Positions 17,611 through 28,990 of a stretch of DNA of 64,000 nt are shown here, piece after piece; position 1 is the stretch's first letter, and every line of letters begins with the position of its first letter. Position numbers and translations under genes: made by a program. Source of the DNA: Paucisalibacillus globulus (GTDB taxonomy: Bacteria; Bacillota; Bacilli; Bacillales; Amphibacillaceae). The DNA is taken from assembly GCF_900184735.1 (NCBI RefSeq), contig NZ_LT855399.1:62001-126000 (forward strand), in the 5' to 3' direction. The notes under the pieces were generated by a model. That model was not told the origin of the DNA. It ran no database searches and saw only the letters and a list, made by a program, of their open reading frames with translations.

Positions 17611-18903
17611 TTAGACTTTAGATAGAGTAAATATCCATTTTAACCAACTTAATACACTTCCTGATCGTCTATCGATTTGTGATTCGCCACAAACATTATA
17701 TTCTCTCATTTTACTTTTCACAATTTCCTTTGATGGAAATTCACCGTTATTATAAATGTCAATAAAAAATTCATGAAATATTTTGTGTTCTAAAATTAAC
17801 TTCACAAGGCTCAACTGTCGGGCTTTATAATTTAATTTATAGATTCTTTCTCCTAAGCTAGTCAATTGGGCAACGACTTTACCAGTATTTTCATCATTTG
17901 TTTTTTCAAATAATCTTAAGTACTTACCAGCATTAAAATAATAATAAGATTGTCTGTCTTTAAACTGCATCAATTCTGCGATGTCATCAGTAGTCATACA
18001 ATTTTCATAAAGATGTTCTAACAACGATATAACCCTTTCAAATGAGTCAGCTTGTACGAAAGGAATATCAGTGTTGTTCATATTATCGTCAGTTTTGACA
18101 TTAGTCTTGTGATATACTTCTAACAATTCTTCATTATTTATTTCAGTATCTTGCAGTGAGTAGTTCCTTTCTTTTACAAGTTGAATCGATGAATAGTCTT
18201 CTAATGATTGAAATTCATATTCAAATAGTCTATAAATCATATTCGAATAGACAGAAAAAACTAGTCGAATTGGTTTCTTTACACGCTTCTGCCATAAACG
18301 ATATGGATAATATAATTGTCTAATATGGAAGTCTGGATAAACAACATTTTTTGCTTCTAAAATTACTACTGACTCTTCATTTTCGAAGCCACCGTCTATT
18401 TCACACTGTGCATTTTTTACAAAGACATTTTCCTTACCTCGTCTTGTGTTTACAACGAAGCTAAACTCACCAGTTCCCATCCGACCATTAAAGGTTTGCA
18501 CATTTTGATCCACCTCTAGAAAATCATCTAGTACATTAGAAATAACTAGAAGATTAATTGCATTTGACTCTGAAGAAATATTATTTACATCAATTGTTTC
18601 AAAGTCAGGGATTTCCACTTTTTGCATTTTAGTAACATGTTCTGTCAAGGCTGGAACCTTTTCATATAATTGGAAGTTGCCCAATACATATGAACTTCTA
18701 CTGTCAGGAAGAATATTAATTTTGCTTTTTTCCAATATACTAGGAAGTGATTCGGAACTATCCCATTTTGACATTAATCTTGGTTCACGGAATTCTTTAA
18801 TTTGTTTTGATAGAATCTTATATTGTCCATCTTCTTTCACTTTATTAACAATATCGTACTTGTCGAAGATTTTCTTCCAAGCTTCATTACTAGATATGTT
18901 CAT
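17611..18903 (-). CDS. Predicted type II restriction endonuclease, PD-(D/E)XK type
   Basis: The 430-residue protein is encoded directly after, and overlapping by 14 bases, a Dam-type methyltransferase. A nuclease core is readable: Asp170 in CEIDGG, then VVILEAKN with Glu183-x-Lys185, and a following QLYYPYR segment, the normal PD-(D/E)XK arrangement. The N-terminal 140 residues may hold a DNA-recognition part; residues about 285-430 look like a winged-helix region (SFERVISLLEHLYENC..DIAELM). I recall similar proteins annotated as type II enzymes with DUF6996/DUF7226 domains. It does not resemble DpnII, MboI or Sau3AI. The target sequence should match that of its partner methyltransferase and is unknown. 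Confidence 0.72.
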   Translation of the reverse strand: MNISSNEAWKKIFDKYDIVNKVKEDGQYKILSKQIKEFREPRLMSKWDSSESLPSILEKSKINILPDSRSSYVLGNFQLYEKVPALTEHVTKMQKVEIPDFETIDVNNISSESNAINLLVISNVLDDFLEVDQNVQTFNGRMGTGEFSFVVNTRRGKENVFVKNAQCEIDGGFENEESVVILEAKNVVYPDFHIRQLYYPYRLWQKRVKKPIRLVFSVYSNMIYRLFEYEFQSLEDYSSIQLVKERNYSLQDTEINNEELLEVYHKTNVKTDDNMNNTDIPFVQADSFERVISLLEHLYENCMTTDDIAELMQFKDRQSYYYFNAGKYLRLFEKTNDENTGKVVAQLTSLGERIYKLNYKARQLSLVKLILEHKIFHEFFIDIYNNGEFPSKEIVKSKMREYNVCGESQIDRRSGSVLSWLKWIFTLSKV

Positions 18904-19738
18904 AATTGTAAACTAACACCTCGTTTATTTCTCCACGCTTATTAGCTTTACTGTTAATAGCCCGTTTTGCTTTTATAGTCTTTATATTATAATCTTTATA
19001 TAAATCTCTAATTATTGGATGATCAGAATTGGATAGTAGAAATTTTATCCCCCGTCTATTTAAATTATCACATTGTTCTTTTAATTCTATTTGCTGTTCC
19101 AGTGTAAAACCATTTTCCGTGTACCCTGTAAAAGAAGAAGATGTAGAAACAGGTAAATAAGGTGGATCAAAATAAACAAACGCACCTTTTCTTAAATTTT
19201 TTAATGCTCCCTTATAATCGGTGTTCATTATTTTAATGTTCTTTTCATTAAAATAATTTGACATGGCATAGATAACGGGCCTATTAACTATATTAGGATT
19301 TTTATATTTTCCAAAAGGTGTGTTAAATTGTCCAGCTGAATTAACTCTAAAGAGGCCATTGTAACAAGTCTTATTTAGATAAATTATCCTTGCTGCACGT
19401 TCAACATTAGATAGATTGTCTATATAATTTTCCTGTCTATCAAGTGCTCTAATCTCATAGAAATATTCTTGGTTATTATTTTCTTTATGAGTTATAAGTA
19501 ACTCTACTAATTCATCTGGTGAATCCTTTATTACATTATATACATTAATTAATTCTTCATTAAAATCATTTATAATTGCTTTATTTGGCTGATATTCAAA
19601 TAGAACTGCTCCTCCACCAACGAATGGTTCCACATAGGTAGAAGCATTTAGAGGAATTAGTGGAATGATCTCGTGAAGTAGTTGTCTTTTACCTCCGACC
19701 CATTTTAGTACAGGACTTAATATAGTATTTTTTGACAT
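18890..19738 (-). CDS. Dam-family DNA adenine-N6 methyltransferase (DpnM-like)
   Basis: The 282-residue protein is a full-length alpha-class adenine methyltransferase. It has LKWVGGKRQLL at the N-terminus, the SAM-binding FVGGGAVLFEY (about 39-49), NDFNEELINVYN and the catalytic DPPY at 191-194 within FVYFDPPYLPVS. The whole length is similar to what I remember of M1.DpnII, including NGLFRVN and the NxP(F/Y)G(K/R)YKNP segment. Family members modify GATC or longer sites containing GAT; the actual site is not readable. It overlaps the restriction gene, which it protects against. Its codon use is AT-rich like the rest of the island. Confidence 0.88.
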   Translation of the reverse strand: MSKNTILSPVLKWVGGKRQLLHEIIPLIPLNASTYVEPFVGGGAVLFEYQPNKAIINDFNEELINVYNVIKDSPDELVELLITHKENNNQEYFYEIRALDRQENYIDNLSNVERAARIIYLNKTCYNGLFRVNSAGQFNTPFGKYKNPNIVNRPVIYAMSNYFNEKNIKIMNTDYKGALKNLRKGAFVYFDPPYLPVSTSSSFTGYTENGFTLEQQIELKEQCDNLNRRGIKFLLSNSDHPIIRDLYKDYNIKTIKAKRAINSKANKRGEINEVLVYNYEHI

Positions 19739-19992: not shown

Positions 19993-20619
19993 TTAAAGTT
20001 TTTTAAAAATAAGTAGGTGCTCATGGGCAATTGGGATAAAATTATCGGTAGCGTATTTTTTGTTCTGACTTAAAGTGTTATGCTGGATTTTGATTAAATG
20101 AGATTCTAATTCCCCATACCACTTCATATCTCTAATAATGGAATAATATTTTCTGTTTCTGCGTACATCACCAATCAAAATAGCATGTCTTCCAAATGTA
20201 CTTAGACTATTAAATATTTTCTGGTTTATAAAATTTAGTTTGTTTATAAATTCATTATAGTCTTGTATGTGTGATATATCATCTTCATGTATTTTGTTTC
20301 CCCATACATTATTCTTACCAGAATATTTAATGATATTCCAGTATGGGGGATGACTGAAAACTAAGTCTGCACCTGCAGGTAATGGATCCTCTAATATATT
20401 AAAATTGCCAAATCTGTTGTTTAAATCTAAATGGATACTGTTTGTGTAACCTAATTCTATTGCAGCATCATAACCACTTCCACCTCCGGCGAAACACTCT
20501 AAGAAATTTTTGGGTTTAAAGTGTAATAATAGATCCCTAATAACATAACCAGAACAGTTACCACGATAACTTGAATTACCATAGTGTCCGCGGTTAGGGT
20601 AAGATAAAATACTAATCAA
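19993..20619 (-). CDS. Solitary DNA methyltransferase-like protein
   Basis: The likely start is TTG at 20619 with GGAG seven bases upstream; the frame runs open to 20664. The 208-residue product begins LISILSYPNRGHYGNSSYRG. It carries a SAM-binding CFAGGGSG motif (about 42-49), a catalytic SHPPYWN (about 89-95) and the late IGDVRRNRKYY. A motif-I-before-motif-IV order with HPPY resembles small N4/N6 methyltransferases of phages and plasmids. No cognate nuclease gene adjoins it, so it may be an anti-restriction or epigenetic enzyme, or an accessory of the neighbouring systems. Confidence 0.65.
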   Translation of the reverse strand: MISILSYPNRGHYGNSSYRGNCSGYVIRDLLLHFKPKNFLECFAGGGSGYDAAIELGYTNSIHLDLNNRFGNFNILEDPLPAGADLVFSHPPYWNIIKYSGKNNVWGNKIHEDDISHIQDYNEFINKLNFINQKIFNSLSTFGRHAILIGDVRRNRKYYSIIRDMKWYGELESHLIKIQHNTLSQNKKYATDNFIPIAHEHLLIFKKL

Positions 20620-20664
20620 AATATCACTCCTAATTCTATGAATATAGTAAATGTAAATTCTCAA

Positions 20665-20948: not shown

Positions 20949-20983
20949 ATAATAGACAGGTATCAGTGATACCTGTCTATTAT
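20949..20983 (-). terminator. 35-base perfect palindrome, terminator of the five-gene cassette
   Basis: Bases 20949-20965 pair without mismatch with 20967-20983 around a single central G (core GACAGGTATCA / TGATACCTGTC). On the minus strand it comes 9 bases after the last stop of the cassette and is followed by CTTTTAAA. It is a strong Rho-independent terminator. Confidence 0.8.
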
Positions 20984-20991
20984 AGATGCAG

Positions 20992-21465
20992 TTAGTCAAA
21001 CGGACTATTATCTTCATTTAAACTATCAACAAAATGAATAATTGCCTTTAGTAAATCAGCTTTCTCGGTATAAACTATAGTTAATGTACCATCTTCTTGT
21101 TCCTTAATATAAGGCTTAAAGATTTCTTCAATTAGTATTTCCATTCCATGGTCAGCGTATTGTTCAGCGATTTTATAAACTTTCTCAGCATCATCAAGAA
21201 TATTTAAATTTTGCTCTCCGGATGATTTAACTGCAATAGATCTTAATACTGTTTCCTGATGCTCATCAAGAGTTCCAGACCATAGTAACATTTCAGTATT
21301 CTTTAATTCATTTCTATTTCCTGATTTATATCCAATAGTACAGCAAAGAGTGAATAAATCTTTGTTTTCTGTGAAGATACGAGGGCTCGATTTCTTATCT
21401 GTTCTTAATTCTCGGTAGATATCAATAAATCTCCTTCGAACGTAAATACGATGTCCTAAGCTCAT
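20992..21465 (-). CDS. Cassette gene 5: small Dnd-associated-type protein
   Basis: The 157-residue soluble protein starts within the stop of the DndD-like gene (ATGA overlap), with AAAGGAG just inside the preceding frame. The first 50 residues (RRRFIDIYRELRTDKKSS..FTENKDLFTLCCTIGYKSG) resemble the family I remember as dnd system-associated protein 4, found beside DNA phosphorothioation genes. The rest is acidic and helical (AEKVYKIAEQYADHGMEILI). No enzymatic motif is visible. Tight coupling to the ATPase gene suggests a subunit or regulator of it. Family assignment is from memory and moderate. Confidence 0.6.
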   Translation of the reverse strand: MSLGHRIYVRRRFIDIYRELRTDKKSSPRIFTENKDLFTLCCTIGYKSGNRNELKNTEMLLWSGTLDEHQETVLRSIAVKSSGEQNLNILDDAEKVYKIAEQYADHGMEILIEEIFKPYIKEQEDGTLTIVYTEKADLLKAIIHFVDSLNEDNSPFD

Positions 21466-23534
21466 ATTGATTTACTCCTTTCGATTGCCTTTATATTAGA
21501 TAGATCCTCAGGGGATACTTCTTCAATTTTCGTTACTCCTTCAGAGATGGCGTCCAGTAGATAGAATTTCCCCCATTTCCCAGTATCTTTTAAAAATTTA
21601 GCTTCTTCATCTTCTTTAAATTCACTACCAGTAACAAGTAATATCCATTGTGGAGTAATCGTCGGGATATGACTTACAAGATTATACCGGTGATCTGGTG
21701 ACAGACGTCCAAATGGGGTATCCATAAATAAAGGTATTTCCAACATTGAAGTTCCACCAGCAACTGCGGCTAATGCAGTAATAAAGGATAGAGAAATAAT
21801 CTGCCTTTGACCAGCTGATATGTTGGCAAGGAATGGACGACCACTCCAATCTAGTACATCTAAAGTATAATTGTCTTTTACAATTATTTTTTTTAAGTTT
21901 GTTGATCCACCTTCATCAATAAGGTTCTTGAAGATGTCGTTTGCTTTAGATTCAAGTTCAACTTTTATCTCTTGTTCAAAGCTTTGAATAATTTCATTTA
22001 GAGCAGTTAGACTTTTATCAACGATCTCCAATTGACGGGTAATTTGGGCTTGTAATTCATTCTCAACTTTAAGGCTTTTTTGTTTTTTCTCAAGTGTCTC
22101 TTTATATTTGAGAGCCTCGTCACGTTCTGCTTCATAACTCTCTAGTTGTTGTTCAGCTCTTGCTATATCCTTCATTAAAGTATCTCGATATTGGAAGTCG
22201 TTAACCATATCTTGCTCTGAGATTTCCCCAACATCCTTCTTTAACCGTTCGTAATCATTTGTATATATTTCTAGCTGCTCTTCAATTTGGGCGGCATTAG
22301 TAAGGCTTTGAGATATAGAATTTGAGGAGTACATAATATGACTTGCTGTTGTTTTTAAGTCACCAAATAACTTCATTGCATGTTTTTCATAAACCTGAGT
22401 ATTTGATTTTTGTTTCCAGTTTAGTAAACTCTCATATTCTTTTGAACCAATACTTAGCTCTCGGCCGCAAATACAACTCATCTCATTTAATAATCTGTCA
22501 ATTAGCTCTGTCTTTATTTCAGAAGGTACTTCTCCACGAATTCTTTGCCCCTCTAAATCAGCTATTAGTTCTCCAACCGTGTCTTTTGCAAGTAGTACAC
22601 TAAGTGAAGAAGTTAATTCGACCATTTGTTGGTTACTCTGACTATGCTCTTCCTTTAGAGCATCAATTGCTTTTTCTAAGTCAAGGATTCTATTAAGAGT
22701 AGGTCTTTGTTCTTCAATTTCTTTCAATTTCCGGTCAATTTCTGCCTTTTGACTTTCTGCAAAGTTTAAATCTTTCACTATGCTATCAATTTTGTTTTGA
22801 ATGTTGGCCAATTTTTCATCGACTGCTTCAATTTCTTGGAGGTTCTTAAACATTTCACCTGTTGAAATCTTTTTTAGTTCACTATTTAAGTCTCTTTTGC
22901 TTTCTTCTAACGCTTGCTTTAATAGAAATAAATTATCGATTTTTAATAGGTTTTTAATTCCTGTACGTATATTTTCTTTCTGCTTTTTTGAAGCTTTAGT
23001 TAAAGACTCAATACGCTCACCATCAAAAAGGAAGTAGTTTTTTACACGTTCATCTAAGATTGAATTAATAATTTCACGAATATCATCGTTCTTCGATTCA
23101 TCATGATATTCGGTATTTCCATCATCTTTGATAATTGTTAATTTGACACTTGGCAGGTCTTCATGAATCTCTCCATTTTGATCCTTTATAGCATTGAAAT
23201 ATCTTCTAATTTCATATCGTTCATTATTATGGGAAAAGTCGATAGTAACTCCTACTGTAATTCCTTTTCCACGTTCAGCGGCTTCATCAATCGCTTTTAA
23301 ATTTGCCAAATAAATTACCGAATCTTTATTATCCTCAAATTCATCTTGTTCTAGATAACGGTCGCCATAAAAACCAAATAACATTGAACGATAAAGAGTG
23401 GTCTTCCCTCGACCATTTTCACCATAGACTACAGTAACGTTAGATTTGTCATCTTCATTTACACCAGAAAATTCGATAGTTTGCTCTCCGTAATATTGTT
23501 TAAAGTTTTGCATGACAATCTTTCTAAGTCTCAT
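21462..23534 (-). CDS. Cassette gene 4: DndD-like SMC/Rad50-type ATPase
   Basis: The 690-residue protein has the Rad50/DndD architecture: N-terminal Walker A in YGENGRGKTTLYR (about 37-48), FLFDGERIESL (about 168-178; the FxFDGE motif is typical of DndD), long coiled coils (about 200-350 and 400-540) flanking CICGREL at 354 in the zinc-hook position, and the C-terminal signature NISAGQRQIISLSF followed by Walker B-like IPLFMDTPFGR. In Dnd systems DndD supplies ATP hydrolysis for DNA sulfur modification. Here dndA, dndC and dndE are absent from the window, so the ATPase probably serves a restriction or sensing complex instead. Four-base overlaps with both neighbours show coupling. Confidence 0.82.
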   Translation of the reverse strand: MRLRKIVMQNFKQYYGEQTIEFSGVNEDDKSNVTVVYGENGRGKTTLYRSMLFGFYGDRYLEQDEFEDNKDSVIYLANLKAIDEAAERGKGITVGVTIDFSHNNERYEIRRYFNAIKDQNGEIHEDLPSVKLTIIKDDGNTEYHDESKNDDIREIINSILDERVKNYFLFDGERIESLTKASKKQKENIRTGIKNLLKIDNLFLLKQALEESKRDLNSELKKISTGEMFKNLQEIEAVDEKLANIQNKIDSIVKDLNFAESQKAEIDRKLKEIEEQRPTLNRILDLEKAIDALKEEHSQSNQQMVELTSSLSVLLAKDTVGELIADLEGQRIRGEVPSEIKTELIDRLLNEMSCICGRELSIGSKEYESLLNWKQKSNTQVYEKHAMKLFGDLKTTASHIMYSSNSISQSLTNAAQIEEQLEIYTNDYERLKKDVGEISEQDMVNDFQYRDTLMKDIARAEQQLESYEAERDEALKYKETLEKKQKSLKVENELQAQITRQLEIVDKSLTALNEIIQSFEQEIKVELESKANDIFKNLIDEGGSTNLKKIIVKDNYTLDVLDWSGRPFLANISAGQRQIISLSFITALAAVAGGTSMLEIPLFMDTPFGRLSPDHRYNLVSHIPTITPQWILLVTGSEFKEDEEAKFLKDTGKWGKFYLLDAISEGVTKIEEVSPEDLSNIKAIERSKSI

Positions 23535-23704
23535 TTCATGCTCTCCTTCGCCATTTTCTCAATGTCACGTGAAATACGGTTTTTTACACGTGTTAATTGT
23601 GCTCTTTCTGTGTATAAGATTCCTTTTTTAAGAATGTTTTGTACTTCTTCATCATAGTTTTCTATTTTTTTTATGATTTTGTCATTAATTTTAAAGTTCT
23701 CCAT
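23531..23704 (-). CDS. Cassette gene 3: 57-residue charged protein
   Basis: The start is ATG at 23704 (MENFKINDKIIKKIENYDEE), with AAGGAAGTG upstream, inside the end of the helicase gene; the frame extends to 23725. The product is short, helical and highly charged, without membrane helix or known motif. It overlaps the helicase by 14 bases and the ATPase gene by 4. Such tiny genes between large subunits are often structural or regulatory partners; nothing more can be said. Confidence 0.6.
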   Translation of the reverse strand: MENFKINDKIIKKIENYDEEVQNILKKGILYTERAQLTRVKNRISRDIEKMAKESMK

Positions 23705-25805
23705 TTTGGTCACTTCCTTCTTCATTTTGCATCATACGATAGGCATCCCAAGGTTTTAAATCAATAATATGGCGAAGATTATAAGCGCCAAGGATTGGTA
23801 ATATAACTTCTCGAGATTCAAATTTATTTAATGCTCCTTCTGCAAACTCAGCAAATCTTGGAATCTCTCTTTTTAATAAACCAGCTCCTGCATCTTCCCC
23901 CCAGTTTGATGTTGGCGGAACAGCATAAAAGTCATAAATGATAGCTTCTTTCTTGTTTTTATACTTACGTAAAATACGACCACGGCGTTGAACAAATTCA
24001 CGAGGGTTTGTTGTACTAGATAAAAAGTAAGCTTCTTTCGTAGCTGGAATATTTACACCCTCATCCAAACATTTCATAGCAACGAGTATTTGTATATTAC
24101 CATTTCCAAATTGCTCTAGAAGTTCCATTTTCTTTTGATTTGAGACTGTGTATATAAATTCATGTGCACGAATTCCCAAATTAGCGAGCATTTTTACAAC
24201 CTCATTTGTTTTACCAAAGGGACTGTATACTAGTGTGTGTTGAATATTACTTAGTCCAACACGTTCTATTTTTTCTTTTAAGAGTGTTTCAAGTAGAGTC
24301 ATTTTTTCTTCTGCTTTATTTACAACTCTAGATCGTAAAATCAATAACTGATGAACTTTTTCCCTACGCTCAGAAATTGAAAGGTTCTTATCATTTTGCA
24401 CATTAATTATTTTTTGGGTAAAAGATTGAAATTGCTCATATTCCGTATCAGTTAGTGTCACTGTTTTAGGATAAAAACGATAGGGAGTAAGAAATCCCTT
24501 TTCAACGGCTTCAGTAATGGGAAGATCTATAACAGTTTTATCAAAATAATTTCTTAATTTACTACTTCCATCCTCATCAAACCATCTATCAGGTGTAGCA
24601 GAAAGACCAATTCTATAGTCGAAATTTGGATGTAGTAAGCGACTAAGCTTTCTTGCTCCTAAGTAATGTGATTCATCGGCAATATATAGAAATGGTGCTT
24701 TTACAGTTTCCATTAGTTTTAAAAACTCTTCAGAAGCACCTGTATCATGAGTAGTTATAATACATAAGTTAGTTCTTAATCCTTTATTAATATCAAATAT
24801 TTTGGTGCGTAATTGCGAAATCCACGTGGAAGTTGTATCTTTACGGACTAATGGATTAAAACCAAACATTCGAACCTCTTCTTCCCATTGTTCAATTAAG
24901 TGGTTAAATGGGACAGTGATTAGAATAAAACTGCTATTTTGTTCATTCGCAAACTTTGACGCTGCAGCGAGAGAAGTGATAGTTTTTCCTGTTCCAGTTG
25001 CCATTTCAAATAATCCTTTGCCATCATTTGCAAACCAGTTATCAATAGCTTGTGATTGGAACTCATGCAAAGTAATATGCTTAGGGAGTTTAAATTGTAG
25101 CTTTTTAATTGGTACAGGAAGTTTATATGGCCTAGGTTTATTATCCTTCAGCTTAACAATATCTATTTGAATTGCTTCAGGAAGGTCATAAACATGATAA
25201 AAACTTGAATTCTGAATAAACGATTTGTCAAACCTAGTTTCATGCCCTTCTACAAATCCCTCTTGACCAGGTATCCAAGAGCGAAATATGGAAACCCCCT
25301 CACCATTGTAGCTTGCTTTCTCAGAATCATTTAATGATCCATGAAGGGCAACCTTATCTCCGTTACTATCCTCAAATATTGCAAATTTATCATGAAAATC
25401 TCCACGGTTATTCTTCGGAACAGCAATCTTAATTTCAAGTAATCCATCAGCAATGAGCCAGGCTAATATGGTAAGTTTTGCACTTGTCATATTTAATCTT
25501 AAATTCTCTACTTGTTTAGCTAATGTTTGATAAACAATATTGTTTTTTTTTGCTTCGGTTCCAAGCCTGAAAGCGTCCCAATCCATTTCACTTAAATGAG
25601 GGGAAGTGACAAGGATGATTTTCCCTTGCTCTTCGGCCATTTTTAATAAGCCATCCATACACATTTCAAGCCATGAAGACGTGAAGTATCCAACGCCTCT
25701 TTTATAAGAGATTGAATTTGAAAGTAAAGGATTAAATAAATCCTCGAAAATGTTATCATTTTCATTATCATAAATATACTTTAAATCTAGTGAACGAAAA
25801 GTCAT
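23691..25805 (-). CDS. Cassette gene 2: PLD-nuclease/SF2 helicase fusion
   Basis: The 704-residue protein combines two activities. Residues 1-200 form a phospholipase-D-type domain with HDK at 138-140 and GSLND at 156-160 (HxK...GSxN), the catalytic set of PLD nucleases. Residues 245-680 are an SF2 helicase: TGTGKT (270-275), DESH (377-380), LSATPDRW (401-408), LVAMKCLDEGVNIP and QRRGRILR. The type resembles the XPB/Res-like helicases of restriction systems. It would bind, translocate on and cut DNA. Its ATG shares one base with the stop of gene 1, so the two are coupled. Confidence 0.82.
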   Translation of the reverse strand: MTFRSLDLKYIYDNENDNIFEDLFNPLLSNSISYKRGVGYFTSSWLEMCMDGLLKMAEEQGKIILVTSPHLSEMDWDAFRLGTEAKKNNIVYQTLAKQVENLRLNMTSAKLTILAWLIADGLLEIKIAVPKNNRGDFHDKFAIFEDSNGDKVALHGSLNDSEKASYNGEGVSIFRSWIPGQEGFVEGHETRFDKSFIQNSSFYHVYDLPEAIQIDIVKLKDNKPRPYKLPVPIKKLQFKLPKHITLHEFQSQAIDNWFANDGKGLFEMATGTGKTITSLAAASKFANEQNSSFILITVPFNHLIEQWEEEVRMFGFNPLVRKDTTSTWISQLRTKIFDINKGLRTNLCIITTHDTGASEEFLKLMETVKAPFLYIADESHYLGARKLSRLLHPNFDYRIGLSATPDRWFDEDGSSKLRNYFDKTVIDLPITEAVEKGFLTPYRFYPKTVTLTDTEYEQFQSFTQKIINVQNDKNLSISERREKVHQLLILRSRVVNKAEEKMTLLETLLKEKIERVGLSNIQHTLVYSPFGKTNEVVKMLANLGIRAHEFIYTVSNQKKMELLEQFGNGNIQILVAMKCLDEGVNIPATKEAYFLSSTTNPREFVQRRGRILRKYKNKKEAIIYDFYAVPPTSNWGEDAGAGLLKREIPRFAEFAEGALNKFESREVILPILGAYNLRHIIDLKPWDAYRMMQNEEGSDQNGEL

Positions 25806-28800
25806 TATCTCACCATCAATTCTTTTAGTATTACTTCATCTTTTGTTAATTGATAATCTAATTTTCTATCATCGGATTTTAAATAATAATTTGGGATTGA
25901 AGAATTACCACACATATCGATAGAATACAAGTATTTTTGCAGCTCTGACACTTTTACATATCCATCATATTTATTTTTCAATAAATAAGAAATAAAATCC
26001 TGTTCATTTTTAATACCGAATGAATTATCCTTTGATAAGATTCCTGCCTTTTTCGTCCCCAATAGAATAAAGTTATTAGTAGTTTGTAAGATTGAAATTA
26101 ACAATGTGTAATTCCACTCAAATGTCGGATTAATACTCGGGAATTGCTCAATTAAGATATCATTATTAATTATGTCTCGTTCTATATGGATAAAAGGTTT
26201 ATTTGAATTATGCAAGAAATTCTCTAAAACTTCTATTAGAAGGGTTTTCTTTTCTTTATTCCATTCGATTAAATTTACATGTGCAAACTCTTCTGGAAAT
26301 ACCTCTAGAATTACTTCTTTATTCTTAGAATAGGCCATATAATATGTTGACATTGCCCAGCCACGTTCTTGAACAAATTCCTCATAAAGCTCATCACGTA
26401 GAAAATAATCTTCGTTTTCTAAAAAGAATGTTTCAAACTGCCCTACAACAGAGAGTTGTTCCGTTTTATACTTTCCAACAGGATGAATATGTGGAAAGCG
26501 ATAAAAGTCAAATTCCTCAGTATAATATTTCTCAAGTAAATGGTATAAGACTCTACTATCTTTGATATTCATTTGTAGTAATGTGGACTTTCGTTCTTCG
26601 AAAATCGTTTCAATAGAATAGCTATTTTGTAGATGATTCATCTTCTTCTTTGCATACAAGAATATTCCTTCGAGTTCTTCTTTCTCAATATTTAGACAAT
26701 CAATGTGAACAAGGCCATTTGATGTTTTTAATAATACCTCTGAAGCTGATATGTTTTGTTCAAACATAGTTTTTGTCCAACCGATAGTATTAATAAAATA
26801 ATTTGTAAGATCTTCATTTGAAATATAACCATTGTTATTTTTCACATATTTTTCTAAGACTTTTTTCTTTTCTAATCTCTCTTGTCCTGTTGTAACCAAA
26901 GTCGGGGAGCGACTGTAATTAAATGCATCGGGAAAATGTATCTTAAGTAAAGAAAACAATGCGTGTTCTGTATCAATCTCTAGTCTCTTTAGCTCATCTT
27001 CAAATTTGCTAAATGCTATATTTGTGTTAATTTGCTTAATTTTATCGGAAAGTTGAGACTGCAGCCATTCTTTGATTGGAGAAAGTGTATTAGTGTTAAC
27101 GTCTGGGTGAACTGCTGAGATATGTTTAAAGAAACCTAATCTCCAAAGTACTATTTTATTCTCATCACGAGTTAAGTTAGCAATAATAGATCTAGCTGAA
27201 TCGTTTTTAAATTCCTCTGGGAAGTACTCTAATAACTTTTTAATAAATAAATCTTGTTTTTTATATATATCCAAGCCATCAGCGAATTCTTCTTCAAAAA
27301 CTATTTGGCACATACGAGCTTTTGAGAATTTTTGCTTATAGGTATAAAGATTGGACTGGTTAGTTGATTCAAACGATTCACATATTAATTGGTTTGTTAC
27401 GACTTCAAATTTGTTTGAATTTAAATCTTTGTCGCTAACAGAATTTATAGTAAGGAAATTTACGACATATTTTTCAATCTCCTCACGAGAATATAGATGA
27501 GTTTCTTTTTTGTCATTTGTGATATCAGACTTAAAACTTTTAAGTTTTTGAAGGAATTCATCGCGACCATATAAGGATAAATAATCATCGTAAACATAAA
27601 ATGGCATGGAATACACATTTACTAATGACCGCATTAGTTTTATTATATTTTTATCTTTACCTTTAAAAAGGTCGTAGATATTAATAAAAACATAGTCTTT
27701 TATCTCCTGTTCTAGATAATCAAAATATTTCTGATATCTTTTGAACATTTTATCTAAACTTTTTCTGACAATTTGTCTAACTCTCTCACGAGTCACATTA
27801 TATTTTTCTCCTATCTCCTCTAACGTACTTTCTTCTAGTCTATGAAAAACTATTTCCCAATCTCTTTGTTCTAGGAATGGTGGTTTGTTGTTAATGATAA
27901 ACTGGTTTAAAGAACGAGACAAAAGTTCCTGTAAACCTTGAATAGGTAGATGGTTGTATATCTTAGTGCTTAATTCACGTCTTGCTATTTTTTTATATCC
28001 ATTTGAACGAAAGAACTCTTCAATTTCATATGGAAGATCGCCGAGTACTTTTATACCTCTTTCGAAGAATAACTTTAGGACATCTTGACCAAAATAGTCT
28101 TTCATTATAGGAATTTGCATCCATATATCTTTGAATGGAATAAATTCACCTAGATACAAAAATCCTCCTTTTTCAGTGATGGTAGAAGTAGAGTAATTCT
28201 TATTACTAGTTAGTTGAGTTGTTTCTTTTGGTTTACTACCAAGCGTTAGAAAGAATTTTTCTACTGACCTTTGACCCACTTGGGGTACCGTTAACAAAAA
28301 GCTTAAGTCACTAGGTAAATCAATAACTCTTTTGTAACCCCTCTTAATTAATGTGCTTAGAACTTTTGACGCAGGTATAATTCCACTTGACAAAGAAATG
28401 TTAGTACTTTTGCATGGTACTGAATAACTGAAATTTCCCACTTGGAAAACTAGATTTTTTTCAGTTGACTTCTTTACTTCTTTGTTGTTTGATTGAACAC
28501 TAAACTCATTATCGAGATTAATAGAATCAGTTTTAATAACAGAAAATCCTTCTTTGGAAAAGAATTCAGTAGCTTTTTCAAAATTCATATACTCATTTAA
28601 AATATGTTCTATTGGCACGAGATGAAGGTCATACTTCTCATGAATTCCATTAGGAGCCAATTGTATTTTCAAAAAGGCATACTTATAATCAAAGTCTAAT
28701 CTAGAATTGTGTTCTTCTTTTTGTAAAAAAAGTATATATCCGTTTCCATTATTACTAGAAAAATTATACCGTGATAATCTGCCTGAAAACTCAAATCCCT

Positions 28801-28990
28801 GGAAAGATAGATACTTAATCACTGTCCAAAATACATCGAAGTCTTGATTATAGACCTTTTTCAGTTCATTTTCATTAATGTCAGCATAAGTTTTCCAATT
28901 ATATTTTTCTTTTAATTTAGAAATAATATTACCACCATTAGTTGGTAACAGTTTGTTCATTAAGTACGTGGGGATAATGACATTAGACAT
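25805..28990 (-). CDS. Cassette gene 1: 1061-aa protein with RNAP-like HhH and sigma-4-like HTH
   Basis: I do not recognise the full protein. Residues about 206-250 (KVLSTLIKRGYKRVIDLPSD through VPQVGQRSVEKF) read like the RNA polymerase alpha C-terminal helix-hairpin-helix domain, and 302-335 (DVLKLFFERGIKVLGDLPYE) like a second, partial one. Residues 386-412 (EESTLEEIGEKYNVTRERVR, then QIVRKSL) are a clear sigma-70 region-4-type helix-turn-helix. The remaining 640 residues are helical with repeated short blocks around FPEEF, IHFPDAF and VFPEEF that could be winged-helix modules. It is the first gene of the cassette, with GAGGTGAAAGC before ATG 28990. Role: possibly DNA recognition or target sensing. 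Confidence 0.68.
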   Translation of the reverse strand: MSNVIIPTYLMNKLLPTNGGNIISKLKEKYNWKTYADINENELKKVYNQDFDVFWTVIKYLSFQGFEFSGRLSRYNFSSNNGNGYILFLQKEEHNSRLDFDYKYAFLKIQLAPNGIHEKYDLHLVPIEHILNEYMNFEKATEFFSKEGFSVIKTDSINLDNEFSVQSNNKEVKKSTEKNLVFQVGNFSYSVPCKSTNISLSSGIIPASKVLSTLIKRGYKRVIDLPSDLSFLLTVPQVGQRSVEKFFLTLGSKPKETTQLTSNKNYSTSTITEKGGFLYLGEFIPFKDIWMQIPIMKDYFGQDVLKLFFERGIKVLGDLPYEIEEFFRSNGYKKIARRELSTKIYNHLPIQGLQELLSRSLNQFIINNKPPFLEQRDWEIVFHRLEESTLEEIGEKYNVTRERVRQIVRKSLDKMFKRYQKYFDYLEQEIKDYVFINIYDLFKGKDKNIIKLMRSLVNVYSMPFYVYDDYLSLYGRDEFLQKLKSFKSDITNDKKETHLYSREEIEKYVVNFLTINSVSDKDLNSNKFEVVTNQLICESFESTNQSNLYTYKQKFSKARMCQIVFEEEFADGLDIYKKQDLFIKKLLEYFPEEFKNDSARSIIANLTRDENKIVLWRLGFFKHISAVHPDVNTNTLSPIKEWLQSQLSDKIKQINTNIAFSKFEDELKRLEIDTEHALFSLLKIHFPDAFNYSRSPTLVTTGQERLEKKKVLEKYVKNNNGYISNEDLTNYFINTIGWTKTMFEQNISASEVLLKTSNGLVHIDCLNIEKEELEGIFLYAKKKMNHLQNSYSIETIFEERKSTLLQMNIKDSRVLYHLLEKYYTEEFDFYRFPHIHPVGKYKTEQLSVVGQFETFFLENEDYFLRDELYEEFVQERGWAMSTYYMAYSKNKEVILEVFPEEFAHVNLIEWNKEKKTLLIEVLENFLHNSNKPFIHIERDIINNDILIEQFPSINPTFEWNYTLLISILQTTNNFILLGTKKAGILSKDNSFGIKNEQDFISYLLKNKYDGYVKVSELQKYLYSIDMCGNSSIPNYYLKSDDRKLDYQLTKDEVILKELMVR

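What the first reader, a model, noticed from the sequence alone, without database searches (positions are those of the whole stretch)
20992..28990. Five-gene coupled cassette: DndD-like ATPase with PLD-helicase, without phosphorothioation genes
Five genes on one strand overlap by 1, 14, 4 and 4 bases and end at one perfect 35-base terminator, so they form one functional unit. DndD-like ATPase and a Dnd-associated-type small protein point to DNA phosphorothioation systems, and a PLD nuclease fused to an SF2 helicase points to restriction. Yet no cysteine desulfurase (dndA), PAPS-reductase-like dndC or dndE is in 64 kb. The unit lies next to a type II RM pair and a lone methyltransferase. It may be a modification-independent defence system, or a Pbe-like restriction module (I recall PbeABCD with Dnd in archaea and Bacillus).
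Basis: partly seen in the sequence, partly recalled or inferred. Interest (0 to 1): 0.85.

Follow-up and report, generated by a model that had tools for sequence, protein, structure and literature searches.

The report
Phage-defence cassette with added DNA-reader
Four of the five genes are a known bacterial anti-virus set (PbeABCD) that was described working with sulfur-marked DNA; here the marking enzyme is missing from the genome, and the fifth gene is a large protein that looks like a DNA reader and travels with such sets in other microbes, which makes an open question about them testable.

Summary
The five-gene operon is real as described (overlaps 1, 14, 4, 4; 35-base terminator). Genes 2-5 are PbeA, a PbeB-like small protein, PbeC (CxC ABC ATPase) and, weakly, PbeD: a known kind of system. 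The genome (99.97% complete) has no DndC and no PAPS-reductase domain, so no known phosphorothioation (PT) route; Pbe without PT genes is already in print.

Gene 1 (1061 aa, 'g1') is in none of the passages I read. It is a conserved family: two alpha-CTD-like modules, a sigma region-4 HTH, about eight winged helices. In 41 aligned sequences the only three invariant columns lie in the sigma4 recognition helix; two match residues with which sigma70 reads the -35 element. g1 is present in 43 of 47 members of one PbeC clade (3 of the other 4 are cut by contig ends) and in 0 of 25 of the Dnd-linked group. The link with missing PT genes is strong but not absolute. g1-like genes also follow PbeD in a third PbeC clade and open one, probably two, type-4 BREX operons.

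Best reading: g1 is the DNA-recognition subunit of a modification-independent Pbe subtype. Its role is inferred, not shown.

The parts
25805..28990 (-). g1, 1061 aa: N-terminal domain (about 1-160), two alpha-CTD-like helix-hairpin-helix modules (about 175-345), sigma region-4 HTH (346-440), about eight winged helices (476-1055; my reading of the model)
   Evidence: Sigma70_r4 39 bits; AlphaFold pLDDT 84.3, pTM 0.47; repeat comparison H1-H2 98.8%, R3-R5 98.6%, R4-R6 98.1%, other pairs weaker; RNA_pol_A_CTD and HARE-HTH over cut-off in relatives only
23691..25805 (-). PbeA: PLD-type motif HDKFAIFED at residue 138 (HxK followed by D one place later than the classical spacing), SF2 helicase motifs GTGKT 271, DESH 377, SAT 402, QRxGR 606
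   Evidence: PADLOC PDLC02707 742 bits; TIGR04095 442 bits; motifs
23531..23704 (-). PbeB-like small protein, 57 aa
   Evidence: position and size; 80% identical protein in L032; small ORF at the same place in the 9 loci translated there; no model match over cut-off
21462..23534 (-). PbeC, CxC-type ABC ATPase (Walker A 38-45, CIC 354-356, SAGQ 573, MDTPFG 604)
   Evidence: PADLOC PDLC02730 774.5 bits; both cysteines invariant in 10 aligned sequences; motifs
20992..21465 (-). PbeD / Dnd-associated protein 4 (DndE-like)
   Evidence: TIGR04062 40 bits, PADLOC PbeD 23 bits, both weak
20949..20983 (-). perfect 35-base stem-loop terminator
19993..20664 (-). small methyltransferase-like gene, neighbour, probably not part of the system
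   Evidence: PADLOC MTase_II 50 bits
18890..19738 (-). Dam-family MTase, neighbour
   Evidence: PF02086 252 bits; homologue beside Pbe in L032, 57% identity
17611..18903 (-). type II restriction enzyme, neighbour
   Evidence: PADLOC PDLC03513 321 bits; homologue in L032, 43% identity

Best explanation
It is a PbeABCD (CxC ABC ATPase / DndE-like) anti-invader system of a PT-free subtype with a fifth core gene, g1. Inferred mechanism: PbeC and PbeD form an SMC-like DNA-scanning complex (proposed in print for CxC-DndE pairs); g1 is its DNA-recognition subunit, touching DNA with sigma4 (-35-like sequence), alpha-CTD-like modules and a rod of winged helices; once lodged on foreign DNA, PbeA translocates, unwinds or cuts; PbeB is a small adaptor or inhibitor. 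Shown here: gene content, conservation, predicted fold, lack of PT enzymes. Inferred: that g1 belongs to the complex, binds DNA and selects targets. How self is spared is unknown.
For: PbeA/PbeC identity. No DndC, no PAPS reductase in the genome. In 299 genomes of the order, 12 of 12 with a PbeC hit of 820 bits or more have g1 upstream (G171 only its C-terminal half) and 0 of 12 have DndC; of the 10 other genomes with a hit (123-306 bits) 0 have the g1 core beside it and 7 have DndC. Phylum sample of 398 genomes: g1 beside 6 of 6 PbeC of 486 bits or more, DndC in 0 of 6 (two of the six, G000 and G085, are in the order sample too). One PbeC clade, SH-aLRT 99, 43 of 47 with g1. Sigma4 helix: T400 41/41, R401 41/41, E402 40/41, R403 39/41, R405 40/41, Q406 41/41. 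R584, E585, Q589 of E. coli sigma70 are named as reading the -35 sequence (PMC8407463, one passage); letters and spacing fit T583-Q589 in the list of PMC4943231 (one passage). Foldseek: sigmaA region 4 at probability 0.98-1.00 and tandem winged-helix proteins.
Against: No experiment. Foldseek has no match below E 0.001 (the sigma4 hits have E 0.18-0.40) and pTM is 0.47, so the arrangement of domains is uncertain. Conservation of the sigma4 helix may only keep the fold: other sigma4 proteins share it and MzaA matches there. Of 21 g1-type proteins scanned, RNA_pol_A_CTD is over cut-off in 9 and HARE-HTH in 2, not in ours. g1 lies beside Dnd genes in L082, L137 and L139, and DndC lies elsewhere in the genomes of L074 and L078, so g1 is no plain substitute for PT. 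A lone g1 (L143) and g1 in a BREX operon (L144, probably L145) show that it is not Pbe-specific. PbeD assignment is weak.
Confidence: 0.6

Rival explanations
1. g1 is a transcription regulator of the operon (sigma/alpha-like), not part of the effector complex.
For: First gene of the operon; sigma4 helix intact; NCBI names some relatives 'sigma factor-like helix-turn-helix DNA-binding protein'.
Against: 1061 aa with many winged helices; in 14 of 44 loci it carries an N-terminal extension and PbeA is absent; a g1-like gene stands after PbeC/PbeD in 10 loci of another clade; no sigma regions 2-3 matched.
Confidence: 0.12
2. g1 reads a DNA mark (methylation, PT or an unknown one) made by other enzymes; the system is mark-dependent or mark-sparing.
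For: Winged helices read 6mA in several endonucleases (PMC11037411, abstract and outline seen); HARE-HTH whole-protein score over cut-off in L123 and L127; g1 beside Dnd genes in L082, L137, L139; Dam-family MTase beside Pbe here and in L032; a DNA-methyltransferase gene overlaps the start of pbeA in plasmid locus L136, which has a 3' g1-like gene; a radical SAM gene follows PbeD in 12 loci, 11 if L148 is L089.
Against: No regular MTase partner: among 85 flanking ORFs from 41 loci N6_Mtase 3, D12 2, C5 1, with only the first 25 of 103 families shown. The radical SAM gene gave no match in 12 of 12 order genomes with g1, in a search without a positive control.
Confidence: 0.18
3. Solitary Pbe is an inactive remnant that needs PT.
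For: Named as one possibility by Xiong et al. (PMC6459918 section 10); the activity shown there needs dndCDEA; L111 is a broken copy.
Against: All five genes open with catalytic motifs here; a crude motif scan finds HxK..D in 27 of 31 best PbeA-profile hits of g1 loci, which include some other PLD-helicases; the clade is kept across many phyla.
Confidence: 0.06

Closest known systems
PbeABCD of Haloterrigena jeotgali (Xiong 2019, PMC6459918) = CxC ABC-ATPase/DndE system (Rakesh 2024, PMC10853773)
   Same: PbeA PLD-SF2, small PbeB, CxC ABC ATPase PbeC, DndE-like PbeD in the same order
   Different: No PT enzyme in the genome; extra first gene g1, not mentioned in the passages and sections of either paper that I read (supplements not seen)
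PglW of type-2 BREX (PMC12839542, passages read)
   Same: alpha-CTD-like domain followed by winged helices, proposed as a sensory DNA-binding half
   Different: PglW also has NERD nuclease, kinase and inactive STAND domains; g1 has sigma4, more winged helices and no enzyme domain matched
MzaA of the MZA system
   Same: sigma region 4 HTH in a defence operon (30.5 bits)
   Different: the match covers about 43 residues; the rest does not match

Membership tests
PbeABCD / CxC-DndE system | PbeA: PLD-type domain fused to SF2 helicase | tested here: met
   742 bits; HDKFAIFED, GTGKT, DESH, SAT, QRxGR
PbeABCD / CxC-DndE system | PbeC: ABC ATPase with CxC zinc hook | tested here: met
   774.5 bits; CxC cysteines invariant in A1, 10 rows
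PbeABCD / CxC-DndE system | PbeB small protein | tested here: inconclusive
   right place and size, no model match over cut-off
PbeABCD / CxC-DndE system | PbeD, DndE-like | tested here: inconclusive
   40 bits (cut-off 74) and 23 bits; position fits
DndCDEA-PbeABCD (PT-dependent system) | PT modification genes, DndC above all | tested here: not met
   0 DndC, 0 PAPS_reduct in the whole genome
PbeABCD / CxC-DndE system | blocks virus replication | not testable with these tools
   needs phage plating
DndFGH | DndF/G/H proteins | not tested
   no such family came up for the five proteins (best 25 rows shown); genome not searched
MZA | MzaA over its whole length | tested here: not met
   30.5 bits against cut-off 800

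The most novel reading that the evidence does not exclude
g1 aims the SMC-like PbeC-PbeD machine at promoters: sigma4 reads -35 elements, alpha-CTD-like modules read upstream DNA, and the winged-helix rod measures whether the site is naked, so that immunity rests on promoter surveillance and not on any DNA mark. The same kind of reader has been taken up by at least one type-4 BREX operon.
Probability: 0.2. Interest if true: 0.85.

Novelty: new variant of a known kind. Interest (0 to 1): 0.6.

Why it matters
More than half of the PbeAC pairs surveyed in print have no dndCD within 10 kb, and whether they work and how they spare self is open (PMC6459918). A conserved fifth component with a definite architecture and a specific prediction (-35-like DNA binding through R401, E402, Q406) makes that question directly testable. 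It also suggests that DNA-reading modules akin to those of RNA polymerase are a shared part of several defence systems.

Tried and rejected
Rejected: 'g1 strictly excludes PT genes' (L082, L137, L139; DndC elsewhere in the L074 and L078 genomes). Rejected: regular pairing with a methyltransferase. My own motif scan is crude: its first form missed the Dam gene of L032 and was loosened; the second finds a candidate in 8 of 43 5' g1 loci, 2 of 10 3' loci, 1 of 18 DndC loci, 1 of 15 with neither. Rejected: fixed pairing with Zorya: ZorABCD follows L034 (PADLOC) and L037 (single-sequence profiles); L038 has McrBC-like genes, L107 type I RM and L033 an HsdM. Matches of L044_0 and L045_0 to g1 were only to the N-terminal extension. 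Scans of our g1 with Pfam, NCBIfam and PADLOC gave nothing over cut-off but sigma4. The first genome-contig scan, with our PbeC alone, found nothing. Plasmid search with our g1: no match.

Print: ten paper searches (115 was on the -35 residues, and 29 listed only unrelated papers). No listing or passage that I saw describes g1. Krishnan 2020 (recalled as the ABC ATPase paper that first described CxC systems) is not held, nor Aravind and Iyer 2012, and supplements could not be read, so priority is not settled.

Bias: all ten rows of A1 come from g1-bearing loci and one search kept the best 80 of 128, so 44 of 87 is not a prevalence. My PbeA profile took in one PLD-helicase that is not PbeA (L039_1). 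Shared descent makes the Fisher values (0/12 against 7/10, p 0.0007; 0/16 against 9/27, p 0.016) descriptive only.
Full report
Observation. The 2-kb bins from 18 to 30 kb have GC 0.299-0.336; all other bins have 0.336-0.419, which fits an acquired island.

Identity. Gene 2 matches PADLOC PbeA (742 bits), gene 4 PbeC (774.5 bits), gene 5 PbeD weakly (23 bits; TIGR04062 40 bits). Gene 3 (57 aa) sits where PbeB sits and is 80% identical in L032. PbeC has the CxC hook, invariant in ten aligned sequences. Xiong 2019 (PMC6459918; section 10 and passages read) describe PbeA-D, with PbeB of 66 and PbeD of 152 aa, and report that 233 of 553 PbeAC have dndCD within 10 kb. Rakesh 2024 (PMC10853773; sections 16 and 17 and passages read) equate Pbe with CxC ABC-ATPase/DndE systems and note that these also occur without the DndD-centred system.

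No phosphorothioation. In the window's genome (3.92 Mb, 99.97% complete) DndC gives 0 matches, the only DndD match is this PbeC, and PAPS_reduct gives 0 matches while ringing in 14 of 14 controls.

Gene 1. Only sigma70 region 4 is recognised in our protein. In 299 genomes of the order hits at E 1e-7 or better occur in 11 genomes, ours included; all 11 lie beside PbeC. Weaker hits mostly cover the sigma4 region alone; the six that I translated around the motif read like sigma factors (recalled, not tested). In the same 299 genomes the PbeC profile rings in 22 at E 1e-30. Twelve score 820 bits or more; all 12 have g1 upstream (G171 only the C-terminal half, 519 aa) and 0 of 12 have DndC. The other 10 (123-306 bits) have no g1 core beside them; 7 of 10 have DndC. 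At least one of these ten is DndD and not PbeC (G031).

Wider set. A scan of a collection of 84,980 species' genomes found 128 relatives, of which the best 80 were kept as 73 loci. With the earlier loci and the window, after dropping 7 duplicates, 8 extension stretches and one locus without PbeC, 87 loci remain: g1 5' of the operon in 44 (1 with DndC in the stretch held), a g1-like gene 3' in 10 (0 with DndC), none in 33 (18 with DndC). Of the 15 with neither, several are cut by contig ends, and two (L047, L048) have DndC elsewhere in the genome. In the tree of 83 PbeC and 6 DndD (4 short rows left out) the 5' group falls in one clade of 47 rows (SH-aLRT 99): 43 have g1, 3 (L066, L075, L077) end within 1 kb upstream, and L132 has an unmatched 1900-aa ORF there. 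The Dnd-linked rows form a group of 25 with 0 g1 (support 90), the 3' group a clade of 10 (97). The quick tree has long branches, so deep order is unsure; the plasmid loci below are not in it.

Whole-genome DndC over cut-off in 50 of the 73 named genomes: 3 of 32 with 5' g1 (L074, L078, L082), 0 of 10 with 3' g1, 2 of 8 without g1. The last figure is not a fair contrast, because 12 loci with DndC in place were left out of that call. Below cut-off, g1 genomes gave 217.6 bits (L124, partial), 34 (L071), 32 (L133) and 24.5 (L073).

Second sample. In 398 genomes of the phylum (7 of them also in the order sample, ours included), 6 have PbeC of 486 bits or more; 6 of 6 have g1 beside it and 0 of 6 have DndC. 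Of the other 17 genomes with a PbeC-profile hit 2 have DndC over cut-off; none of the 17 has a g1 hit of 200 bits or more, and I did not open their neighbourhoods. g1 without Pbe: a gene in G576 (L143) with no Pbe gene in the 12 kb held, and in G520 (L144) the first gene of an operon that continues with an unnamed 238-aa protein, BrxP (882 bits), BrxC (438) and PglZ (198), i.e. type-4 BREX. G359 (L145) has the same order of gene sizes but was not scanned.

Counterexamples. Among 39 plasmid records with a PbeC match I opened 8: g1 in 4 (L134, L135, L137, L139). In two of these (Pontibrevibacter, Ruegeria) dndD, dndE and a cysteine desulfurase are annotated 1-4 kb before it; dndC would lie outside the stretch taken. 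So g1 marks a Pbe subtype and is not a strict replacement for PT.

Architecture. With 41 aligned sequences (ours and 40 relatives: one 60% identical, the rest 14-24%) AlphaFold gives pLDDT 84.3, pTM 0.47. Profile comparison shows a duplicated helix-hairpin-helix pair (98.8%) and alternating winged-helix repeats (R3-R5 98.6%, R4-R6 98.1%, R2-R6 84%, R5-R7 75%, R1-R3 39%, R6-R8 31%). The count of eight is my reading of the model. Foldseek finds sigmaA region 4 (probability up to 1.00) and tandem winged-helix proteins such as SelB, Dcc1 and UFL1, none below E 0.001. Of 21 g1-type proteins scanned with Pfam, Sigma70_r4 is over cut-off in 18, RNA_pol_A_CTD in 9 (up to 201 bits, L082) and HARE-HTH in 2 (L123 27.3, L127 30.5).

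Sigma4 helix. The only invariant columns of the 41-row alignment are T400, R401 and Q406, in a helix reading TRERVRQ here and TRERIRQ in the sigma-like proteins of relatives. The ten 3' proteins also read [TS]RER[IV]RQ, found with a pattern that presupposes the middle of it. Letters and spacing equal T583 to Q589 of E. coli sigma70, of which R584, E585 and Q589 are named as reading the -35 sequence (PMC8407463, passage; PMC4943231, passage).

Layouts. Of the 44 5' loci 29 have PbeA; 14 lack it and carry a longer g1 with an N-terminal extension (in the two scanned, DUF4145 at 26.5 bits in L034, over cut-off, and 21.8 in L108, below it); one, L111, is broken. In the 3' loci PbeD was not found by profile; in the 8 that I translated a small DndE-like ORF stands between PbeC and the g1-like gene. 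A radical SAM-like protein follows PbeD in 12 loci: 9 of the named set and L147, L148, L149; L148 has the contig length and gene sizes of L089, so 11 if they are one. Of the four of these scanned with Pfam, one is over the Radical_SAM cut-off (L064, 39.6 bits); a CX3CX2C motif supports the rest.

Mechanism and verdict. The best reading is a DNA-recognition subunit for a PT-free Pbe subtype; promoter-directed reading is its bold form. PglW of type-2 BREX, with an alpha-CTD-like domain and winged helices proposed as a sensor (PMC12839542, passages), is a precedent; its section on type-4 BREX (section 34, read whole) does not mention a g1-like gene. The system itself is a new variant of a known kind.

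Noticed in passing
L063, L064, L066, L068, L071, L073, L075, L089, L112, L147, L148, L149: A radical SAM-like protein (CX3CX2C) follows PbeD in part of the g1 clade; a possible source of an unknown DNA mark. L148 is probably the same record as L089.
   Followed up: partly
L144:3181-15672 and L145:370-12141: g1-like protein as first gene of a type-4 BREX-like operon; BrxP, BrxC, PglZ tested in L144 only, L145 has the same gene sizes.
   Followed up: partly
L119, L120, L122-L124, L126, L127, L129-L131: A separate PbeC clade carries an alpha-CTD / sigma4 / winged-helix protein (HARE-HTH over cut-off in two) after PbeC and a small DndE-like ORF.
   Followed up: yes
L033-L038, L065, L070, L072, L074, L106-L108, L110: PbeA is missing and g1 has an N-terminal extension (DUF4145 in L034, with a weak ZorC-like stretch).
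   Followed up: partly
L136: Aurantiacibacter plasmid: a DNA-methyltransferase gene overlaps the start of pbeA, and the 3' g1-like gene is interrupted by an IS3 element; described only.
   Followed up: no
L111: g1 and PbeC are both broken into several ORFs in Gracilibacillus boraciitolerans; described only.
   Followed up: no
window 17611-19738 and L032:15785-17948: The same Dam-family MTase and REase pair lies beside the cassette in two genomes of different families, 57% and 43% identity.
   Followed up: partly
G524, G667, G670, G699, G725, G730, G491, G581: Lower-scoring PbeC/DndD-like hits have a DndC-like match below cut-off, in open frames of about 540-640 aa, some 1.5-10 kb away.
   Followed up: no
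L151:6836-8611: A 592-aa protein with four alpha-CTD matches and sigma4, also matching part of PglW (80 bits), without Pbe genes in the stretch held.
   Followed up: no
L132:2766-8468: A 1900-aa ORF without g1 match stands in the g1 place in Ligilactobacillus pabuli.
   Followed up: no
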